Positions 43,471-46,400 of a DNA stretch of 64,000 nt are shown piece after piece. The notes beneath the pieces are model-generated. The model saw only the letters and a program-made list of their open reading frames with translations. It did not search any database and was not told the origin of the DNA. Made by a program: the position numbers and the translations under genes. Numbering within the stretch: the first letter of the stretch is position 1; each line of letters starts with the position of its first letter. This stretch comes from Pseudorasbora parva (taxonomy: Eukaryota; Chordata; Actinopteri; Cypriniformes; Gobionidae), in contig NC_090186.1 of assembly GCF_024679245.1 (NCBI RefSeq), positions 41,507,569-41,571,568 on the forward strand, written 5' to 3'.

Positions 43471-46400
43471 ATGGCGTCCACGGCGGCGGGTAAACAGAGG
43501 ATCCCGAAAGTGGCGAAGGTAACAGATAATGTTTTGCGAGTTAGCATTAGCATGTAAACAACGTGAAGTTCTTGTGTTGTGTTCCTCTGTGAACAACTGC
43601 TGTATCATATTTTGAGGTGGAGTTAAATGTTGTCTAAACGTGTATTCGTTGTGCGTTATGTGTTCAGGTGAAGAATAAAGCCCCTGCAGAGGTGCAAATC
43701 ACCGCAGAGCAGCTGCTCCGAGAGGCGAAAGAGAGAGAGCTAGAGCTGCTGCCTCCTCCACCCAAACAGAAGATCACAGACAAGGAAGAGCTCAACGACT
43801 ATAAACTGAGGAAGAGAAAGGTATGAGCGAGCGCTGTATGTGTATATGATCACGACATTACTTGCAAAAATACATCATGCTATCTAAAGGTAGTACCATG
43901 GTATTTGATGTATACCATAGTGCTGTATGCTTACTATTTACATGTACAATGATATTGACATTTGCCAGAACATGGTATTACCATAGTACATGTCCAGAAA
44001 ACATGGTTTTGTCAAGGCATGTGCCTCAAAAAGCAATGAATTAGCATGGTATAGAACATGATATTGTCATGTTTCATGGTTTAAAAACATGACATTACTA
44101 TAGTAGGTGTTTTCATGATATGTGCCTTTAAAAGCATATCATTAGGAAGGTGCCTGACATAGAACAGGATATTGCCATGGTTCATGGTCTAAAAACATAA
44201 TATTACCATGGAACATACCCAGAAAACATTGATGTTGTCAAAGTATGTGCTCCAATAAGCATATTAGTGCAAATAGTGTTAGCCAGGTGCATGCCATAAA
44301 ACATTAAAATTGCATTGTACATTTCCAGAAAAATATGATATTACCTCATGTCCAAAAGCAATGTTATTATCATATAGAAAAACATGACTTGCCATGGTTC
44401 ATGATCTAGTCATATATATTTATATAAAACAATGAAGTTAATTCATTTTCTCAACACAGGGGTTTGAAGACAACATCAGGAAGAACAGAACTGTCATCAG
44501 CAACTGGATCAAGTACGCACAATGGGAGGAGAGCCTGCAAGAGGTCCAGAGGTGAGTTTCTGTTCAGCTCTTACTGTTTGAATTGTGGACATGGGGTGAT
44601 TTCCGTAACTGTTTTTTATTTATTTATTGTCCTTAGAGCTCGCTCCATCTACGAGCGTGCGCTCGACGTGGATCACCGCAATATTACGCTGTGGCTGAAG
44701 TATGCAGAGATGGAGATGAAGAACCGGCAGGTGAATCACTCTCGCAACATCTGGGACCGAGCCATCACAATCCTGCCCCGTGTGAATCAGTTCTGGTACG
44801 TCATGATCATATTAGGGTTGTTACGGTACCAAAATTACAGGTTCTTAGTACCAATTTTGTTACCATAGCATAAACTGTTAGAACCATTTTCTTTCTTTCT
44901 TAAAATGTAATTAAATTACTTTATTATTTATAATGCATGTGTGCATGTAGCCTTGAAATAGTAATAAGGAAACATTGTTTATTAAAAGATCAAGTGATAA
45001 ATTTGGAATAAAATTGACAAAGAAATGCATATGTTATGTGCAAGGTCTATTAGTTTGCATTTACAAAGAAAAGGATTCGCGACTGCAGAACTTTAAAGCA
45101 TGTGGTGAGAACTATAATCGGCCATTGTGTTCATGCACTCAACAGATCTGTCTGTCATTGGCTACAATAACCAACACTTCAAAAAATGTGTTGTAAATGG
45201 AAACCTTTGGTGCTCATTGCAGAGCATTCTTTTTAAATACACAAAGCATTACAAGCATTTGTTCCTATCAGTGTTGCCTATCAGTGAGCTACCAAATATA
45301 CCCATCATACCATATCATCATGTTTACAATCTCTGTAGCTACTTGGTTACAAAGTACAGATTACTTTTGGTTACTTTTGACTACCCTAGATTATATAGAC
45401 AGTAATGTATTCAGACAAAGATACTCCAGTTTTTTCTTCTTGTGACTCATATGTTTATGCACCAGGTACAAGTACACCTATATGGAGGAGATGCTGGGGA
45501 ACGTTGCCGGCTGCAGGCAGGTGTTTGAGCGCTGGATGGAGTGGGAGCCGGAGGAACAGGCCTGGCATTCTTATATTAACTTTGAGCTGCGCTATAAGGA
45601 GGTGGACAAGGCCCGCAGCATCTATGAGAGCTATATCCTTTCATGAATGATCGGTTTTACTCTGAAATATTATATTCAACTTTATCTGGCGATATACAGT
45701 ACATTCACATAAAGCAATATATACAGCAAATATCAATGGCTTGCTTTATTTTGTTGCGAAATGTAACTATATAATCCAGCTCTTTGTATAAAGTTGGATA
45801 TTTATAAGTTTTTCCAGCTTTATTCGCATAAAAACAGTAAATTCATGTAGTGCAAAATACGCTGTTCTATATAACATCTCAGCTGTTTGATTGCTTTTAT
45901 CATTGCAAAATGTAAACTCTGCTATCACCCAGCTCTAATCTGCTAAATGCATCTATAAGTCGTGAAGATATTAATATATTATTGAGAATGGCATCATACA
46001 TTTACATATTACATATCTATAAATATAAAAAAAATATTCATTTGAGATTGAATGGCTGTTACATAAAAAAATTAGTTATATTCCTTAACAGCAGAGCACT
46101 CGTGATGGTCCATCCTGAAGTGAAGAACTGGATCAAGTACGCTAACTTTGAAGAGAAGCACGGCTACATCGCTCTCGGGAGGAAAGTGTTTGAGAGAGCC
46201 GTGGAGTTTTTTGGAGAGGATCACATCAGCGAGAGCCTCTACGTGGCTTTTGCCAGATTTGAGGAGAAGCAGAAAGAGGTATGATGTCCCGTGTTCGTGT
46301 CATCCAATGAACAAGATGTTCCCTGTTCACATGTGACCATTCGCTTTGTGTCTTTCAGTTTGAGAGAGTTCGCATTATCTATAAATACGCTTTGGACCGA

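What the first reader, a model, noticed from the sequence alone, without database searches (positions are those of the whole stretch)
45633..46099. AT-AC (U12-type) intron inside the splicing-factor gene crnkl1
The 5' end ATATCCTTT, the branch element TTCCTTAAC and a terminal AC about 11 nt after the branch A are all textbook minor-spliceosome signals. Only this join restores the protein frame (ESFVMVHPEVKNWIK). A core major-spliceosome scaffold therefore depends on the minor spliceosome for its own expression, a possible cross-regulatory link between the two machineries.
Basis: partly seen in the sequence, partly recalled or inferred. Interest (0 to 1): 0.8.

Follow-up and report, generated by a model that had tools for sequence, protein, structure and literature searches.

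The report
Conserved AT-AC minor intron in crnkl1
A fish gene for a core RNA-splicing protein carries one rare intron of the kind removed by the cell's minor splicing machine; the intron looks real and very old, but it is an ordinary member of a known class.

Summary
Window 45633-46099 is intron 5 of a 14-exon crnkl1 gene of a cyprinid-like fish. It begins ATATCCTTTC, carries TTCCTTAAC with the branch A 11-12 nt from the end, and ends AC. It is the only one of the gene's 13 introns with U12 signals. "Only this join" is slightly too strong: one length-preserving GC-AG join exists but scores lower.

The orthologue test passes, read through annotation errors. Among 314 homologue records, 111 show residues past the donor: 108 YIL, as an intron starting AT would give, and none the C that GT would give. 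99 show the residue before the acceptor: all L, so the intron ends in C. The records span fishes, lamprey, frogs, birds, mammals, molluscs and annelids. In the unbiased search 47 of 120 models have an indel at this intron, against 10 of 1433 checks elsewhere.

So it is an ancient AT-AC U12-type intron. Need for the minor spliceosome follows by inference; a regulatory link is unproven. A crude scan found no poly-A signal but did find U2-like sites in the intron, so a hidden switch is not excluded. Major-splicing genes with minor introns are already known.

The parts
43471..51751 (+). crnkl1 coding region (ATG to stop), 14 exons, 765 aa
   Evidence: exon-joined frame is open; its first 684 residues match PDB Crooked neck-like protein 1 at 1340 bits
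45466..45632 (+). exon 5, ends GAGAGCT after the first base of a codon
45633..46099 (+). intron 5, U12-type, AT-AC, 467 nt, phase 1
   Evidence: conservation
45633..45642 (+). U12-type 5' splice site ATATCCTTTC
   Evidence: 8 of 8 match to RTATCCTT; ATATCCTTT unique in the window
45644..45646 (+). in-frame stop TGA reached if the intron is retained (YILS*)
46081..46089 (+). U12-type branch element TTCCTTAAC
   Evidence: 9 of 9 match to TTCCTTRAY
46098..46099 (+). 3' splice site AC, 11-12 nt after the branch A; 10 pyrimidines in the 20 nt before it, fewest of the 13 introns
46100..46278 (+). exon 6, begins TCGTGATGGTC (completes the F codon)

Best explanation
The stretch is a canonical AT-AC U12-type spliceosomal intron, intron 5 of crnkl1, at a position and with end bases inherited at least from the common ancestor of vertebrates, molluscs and annelids. 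U11 and then U6atac pair with ATATCCTTTC, U12 pairs with TTCCTTAAC leaving an A bulged (recalled), and the minor spliceosome joins GAGAGCT to TCGTGATGG to give IYE-S-F-VMVHP. The twelve other introns go to the major spliceosome. If the minor machine fails, the intron is kept (stop after 210 aa) or cryptic sites are used, and less Crnkl1 is made. Shown here: signals, join, conservation of the first and last intron base. Inferred: the machine used and the effect of its loss. It is probably plain inheritance, not a regulatory link.
For: Signals complete in this intron alone among 13. Join best of 158 stop-free in-frame joins and gapless against Crooked neck-like protein 1 in the PDB. In the 120 records listed by a search not built on this place, 47 have an indel within 7 residues of this junction against 10 of 1433 checks at the 12 other introns: gene finders often fail here. 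Among 314 records, 111 read past the donor: 108 YIL, 1 YTL, 1 YYF, 1 MVL, none C as GT would give; 99 read the residue before the acceptor and all give L (intron ends in C), none V. YIL in lamprey (P0194), sturgeon (P0096), frog (P0199), bird (P0121), sheep (P0176), oyster (P0264), annelids (P0281, P0303). Of 185 records with no indel near the join, 181 have F there; the other 4 are YIL read-through models. The 11 records held only by source 'lgn', on contigs of 2109-3417 bases that code 686-832 aa and so are almost certainly spliced copies, have the F-V join, 11 of 11. [quoted passage not shown]
Against: No RNA from this species was seen. The window's own genome could not be searched. Orthologue DNA was not read; bases are deduced from mistranslated gene models, which fixes +1 = A and -1 = C but not -2. 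Two of 111 donor-side reads are neither YIL nor YTL; YTL (P0056, coho salmon) may be a real change at the donor. Records are clusters, several per species, and the second and third searches were built to draw read-through models, so 108 is neither a species count nor a frequency. Insect records printed have the F-V join and say nothing about an intron.
Confidence: 0.95

Rival explanations
1. A U2-type GC-AG intron at 45630-46096, cut by the major spliceosome, giving ETLVMVHP.
For: In frame, same length, second best score of 158 joins. Four carp-family gene models show a TLVMVHP join (P0008, P0010, P0011, P0012).
Against: Replaces the S-F pair: of 185 records without an indel near the join 181 have F, and the other 4 are YIL read-through models. 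Does not explain the complete U12 motifs or YIL in mammals and molluscs. Other carp records (P0003, P0004, P0007) show the F-V join.
Confidence: 0.02
2. An AT-AC intron of the rare U2-type kind, cut by the major spliceosome.
For: U2-type AT-AC introns exist (PMC6717393 and PMC8280824, passages).
Against: Only 2 of 6 match to GTRAGT at the donor, full match to the U12 donor and branch element, fewest pyrimidines before the acceptor of all 13 introns.
Confidence: 0.02
3. The intron is a regulatory link: minor-spliceosome activity sets the supply of Crnkl1 and so tunes major splicing, as SRSF10 does for SR proteins. It adds to the best explanation and does not replace it.
For: Retention gives an early stop. 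AT-AC minor introns are spliced less well and 92% of A-type introns respond to CENATAC loss in human cells (PMC8280824, passages). Length 467 nt is near the median of zrsr2-sensitive zebrafish introns, 451 (PMC9501576, passages). The intron holds U2-like donors at 45763 (7 of 9), 45837 and 45912 (6 of 9) and YAG sites at 45817, 45882 and 45932 with 10 of 15 pyrimidines, within the range of this gene's real sites (donors 6-8, acceptors 8-12).
Against: No poly-A signal in the intron; U2-like sites of this quality are common and none was tested. U12 introns of vertebrates are stable in general (156 of 180 clusters; PMC2831892, passages) and a survey favours neutral causes (PMC10639083, abstract). 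Nothing shows that Crnkl1 is limiting.
Confidence: 0.12
4. Chance motifs in an intron with mis-sequenced ends.
For: None found.
Against: Joint chance about 1e-8 by arithmetic; the same end bases deduced in many other genomes.
Confidence: 0.005

Closest known systems
U12-type AT-AC introns in general (about 22% of minor introns in human, 24% in mouse; PMC6717393, passages)
   Same: Termini, donor, branch element, branch distance, weak pyrimidine tract, phase other than 0, one per gene among U2 introns.
   Different: Nothing structural was found.
SRSF10 AT-AC minor intron (PMC7244321 and PMC8329584, passages)
   Same: A splicing-factor gene with an AT-AC minor intron.
   Different: SRSF10 has a competing U2 intron nested in it and a poly-A site in the extra exon. 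Here no poly-A signal was found; U2-like sites are present but untested.
U12 introns of other major-splicing genes: fly SF3A1 (PMC2831892, passages), SNRPE (PMC6717393, passages; its role in the Sm core is recalled)
   Same: A part of the major spliceosome needs the minor one to be expressed.
   Different: Gene and place. The SF3A1 row lists GC-AG in fly and ends 'absent', which I take to mean human; the crnkl1 intron is AT-AC and shared by vertebrates and protostomes.

Membership tests
U12-type (minor) intron | 5' splice site RTATCCTT | tested here: met
   8 of 8
U12-type (minor) intron | Branch element TTCCTTRAY | tested here: met
   9 of 9
U12-type (minor) intron | Branch A close to the 3' end, about 10-15 nt (range recalled) | tested here: met
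   11-12 nt
U12-type (minor) intron | No strong polypyrimidine tract (recalled) | tested here: met
   10 of 20 pyrimidines, lowest of 13 introns, the others 11-16
U12-type (minor) intron | Same end bases in orthologues | tested here: met
   First residue past the donor is Y (+1 = A) in 110 of 111 reads: 108 YIL, 1 YTL, 1 YYF; the last is MVL (P0100). Residue before the acceptor is L (-1 = C) in 99 of 100 pattern hits; the hundredth, P0194, is not an acceptor read
U12-type (minor) intron | Excised by the U11/U12 and U4atac/U6atac machinery | not testable with these tools
   Needs RNA from minor-spliceosome mutants
U12-type (minor) intron | Pairing with the species' own U11, U12 and U6atac RNAs | not tested
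   Own genome could not be reached; pairing is stated from recall
U2-type AT-AC intron | U2-like donor and polypyrimidine tract | tested here: not met
   2 of 6 to GTRAGT; 10 of 20 pyrimidines
Twintron / SRSF10-type switch | U2 intron nested in or competing with the U12 intron | tested here: inconclusive
   U2-like donors and acceptors inside the intron score within the range of the gene's real sites by a crude count; no poly-A signal; no RNA

The most novel reading that the evidence does not exclude
Animals have kept this AT-AC intron because it makes the supply of Crnkl1, a scaffold of the activated major spliceosome, follow minor-spliceosome activity: an ancient one-way brake from the minor to the major machine that could add to the brain defects of minor-spliceosome disease (CRNKL1 variants are themselves linked to severe microcephaly, PMC12256911, title and passages).
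Probability: 0.1. Interest if true: 0.6.

Novelty: new member of a known kind. Interest (0 to 1): 0.25.

Why it matters
It adds crnkl1 to the major-spliceosome genes that appear to need the minor spliceosome, with evidence that the intron's first base A and last base C were kept since the common ancestor of vertebrates, molluscs and annelids. It explains why many public CRNKL1 protein models are wrong at one place. It offers a test gene in zebrafish zrsr2 or rnpc3 mutants and in CENATAC-depleted cells. The human and zebrafish copies are probably already listed in minor-intron databases, which could not be consulted here.

Tried and rejected
Rejected: GC-AG 45630-46096 and the other 156 in-frame joins; U2-type AT-AC. 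The second TTCCTTAAC at 54031 has no RTATCC[TC] on the + strand between 45633 and itself and is taken as chance. An SRSF10-like nested switch was looked for with a crude scan only and stays open.

Led nowhere: the window's own genome (genome search did not complete), so no second gene copy and no U11/U12/U6atac genes. Orthologue DNA: I had no collection of fish genomes to scan, so I used protein records. Print: CRNKL1 with 'minor intron' 0 papers, with 'U12-type' 3 papers (listing only), 'crooked neck' with 'U12-type' 0, CRNKL1 with 'minor spliceosome' 7 (listing only, except passages of PMC12256911, where 'minor spliceosome' occurs once, in the reference list). One search (3 of 6 terms, 291 papers) listed 30, none with crnkl1; (3 of 5 terms, 94 papers) listed 20. 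Supplementary tables and minor-intron databases were not searched, so this does not show that the intron is unlisted.

Whether Crnkl1 also sits in the minor spliceosome stayed open: passages of PMC11039992 say the human minor Bact complex lacks PRPF19, SPF27 and SYF1, and 'CRN' does not occur in its main text.

Full report
What is there. The window holds a complete crnkl1 gene on the + strand, 43471-51751. Fourteen exons join into an open frame of 765 aa. The first 684 residues match the PDB chain 'Crooked neck-like protein 1' at 1340 bits without a gap at the join in question. The best named homologues are cyprinoid fishes, such as Phoxinus phoxinus at 93% and common carp at 89-91%.

The intron. 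Twelve of 13 introns are GT-AG. Intron 5, 45633-46099, is AT-AC. It matches RTATCCTT at 8 of 8 positions and TTCCTTRAY at 9 of 9, with the branch A 11-12 nt from the end; the other introns reach 2-5 and 5-6. It has 10 pyrimidines in the 20 bases before the terminal pair, the fewest of the 13. ATATCCTTT occurs once in 64 kb on either strand. Markov-1 sequence gives 31 and 26 copies of the two strict motifs in 4 Mb, and 148 and 119 of the relaxed ones; by arithmetic the relaxed pair at one given intron is expected at about 1e-8.

The join. I tried GT-AG, GC-AG, AT-AC, AT-AG and GT-AC pairs with donors 45540-45759 and acceptors 45980-46199. 158 were in frame without a stop. AT-AC 45633-46099 scored best against the Crooked neck-like protein 1 segment (337). 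GC-AG 45630-46096 was second (331) and also keeps the length, so the statement that only one join works is a little too strong. No GT-AG join was among the twelve best. The F created by the AT-AC join is kept: of 185 records without an indel near the join 181 have F, and the other four are read-through models.

Orthologues read through their annotation errors. I had no fish genome DNA to scan, but protein models were at hand. Where a gene finder does not use AT-AC it runs past the donor or starts before the acceptor, and the extra residues record the intron's bases. The fused codon at the donor is T plus the first two intron bases: AT gives Y, GT would give C. At the acceptor it is the last intron base plus TY: C gives L, G would give V. 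Of 314 records from three searches (each lists its best 120), 173 have the F-V join by a strict pattern; 12 more fit no pattern, of which eight are regular by eye and four lack the junction region. 111 records show residues past the donor: 108 YIL, 1 YTL (P0056), 1 YYF (P0166), 1 MVL (P0100). 99 show the residue before the acceptor, all L; a hundredth pattern hit, P0194, is not an acceptor read. YIL is what TATATCCTT encodes, though I and L leave other codons open. Named sources of YIL include lamprey (P0194), sturgeon and paddlefish (P0001, P0096, P0210), teleosts, frogs (P0199, P0200), birds (such as P0121), seven mammal records (P0154, P0170, P0172, P0176, P0177, P0182, P0185) and five protostomes: Magallana gigas P0264, Solemya P0269, Capitella P0281, Candidula P0298, Lamellibrachia P0303. 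Insect records printed were regular and say nothing about an intron.

Control. The first search was not built on the junction. In its 120 listed records (of 4645 found), an indel lies within 7 residues of the intron-5 junction in 47 of 120, and at the 12 other introns in 10 of 1433 checks, at most 2 per intron. Four more of the 120 are read-through models of unchanged length, which agrees with 51 of 120 not regular by pattern. The second and third searches were built to draw read-through models, so their proportions are not frequencies.

Transcripts. Eleven records come only from source 'lgn', which I take (recalled) to be assemblies of raw sequencing runs. Their contigs are 2109-3417 bases long and code for proteins of 686-832 aa, which leaves little room for introns, so they are almost certainly spliced copies. 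11 of 11 have the F-V join. They are relatives, not this species.

How it works. Established knowledge: U11 and U6atac recognise this donor, U12 this branch element (recalled; snRNA sequences were not examined). The minor spliceosome should remove the intron; retention gives YILS and a stop at 45644-45646, after 210 aa. In human cells 92% of A-type minor introns respond to CENATAC loss and they are spliced less efficiently than G-type (PMC8280824, passages). In zebrafish zrsr2 mutants 218 of 662 U12 introns are retained, the shorter ones more (median 451 bp), and 48 affected genes act in RNA processing (PMC9501576, passages); 'crn' does not occur in that main text. So crnkl1 is a likely, untested target.

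Regulation. A cross-regulatory link is possible but unproven. The intron holds no AATAAA or ATTAAA. It does hold U2-like donors (45763, 7 of 9; 45837 and 45912, 6 of 9) and acceptors (45817, 45882, 45932; 10 of 15 pyrimidines), and exon 5 holds one donor (45521, 7 of 9); the gene's real sites score 6-8 and 8-12 by the same count. A hidden cassette as in SRSF10 is thus not excluded, though such sites are common. Vertebrate U12 introns are kept in all lineages in 156 of 180 clusters, and AT-AC ones convert to U2-type less often than GT-AG ones (PMC2831892, passages). A pan-eukaryotic survey favours neutral causes and finds minor introns on average less conserved than major ones (PMC10639083, abstract and sections 26 and 29). 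Conservation among vertebrates is therefore expected without regulation; conservation to molluscs and annelids is less routine, since in 194 of 267 vertebrate U12-intron genes with an invertebrate orthologue the intron was missing there (PMC2831892, passages).

Known or new. Major-splicing genes with minor introns are known: SNRPE, fly SF3A1, SRSF10. I found no main text in this library that names a CRNKL1 minor intron (searches; listings only, apart from passages of PMC12256911), but databases and supplements were out of reach and the human and zebrafish introns are probably listed there. I rate it a new member of a known kind, with modest interest.

Noticed in passing
public CRNKL1 protein models, P0001-P0120: 47 of 120 models have an indel at the intron-5 junction, a systematic annotation error at an AT-AC intron; one such model (P0051) is named GDNF family receptor alpha.
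   Followed up: yes
42830-42916, - strand: Reads EWSDAEEIDHLIRPAAVAVFGRLNVIHL, which I recall as CFAP61-like; another stretch that I recall as cfap61-like lies at 15685-16224 (-). It would stand head to head with crnkl1, about 560 bases between the coding parts, a possible shared promoter.
   Followed up: no
9181-10383, - strand: Stop-to-stop frame of 400 aa with MPRGFLVKRNKK near its start and zinc-finger-like stretches, INSM1-like by recall.
   Followed up: no
3484-6924: Tandem array of a 42-base unit, about 82 copies, 95% alike, which leaves long open frames on both strands; a minisatellite, not a gene.
   Followed up: partly
54031, + strand: Second TTCCTTAAC, with no RTATCC[TC] on the + strand between 45633 and itself; probably chance.
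   Followed up: partly
P0056 (Oncorhynchus kisutch): Read-through gives YTL instead of YIL, a possible donor change in one salmonid copy.
   Followed up: no
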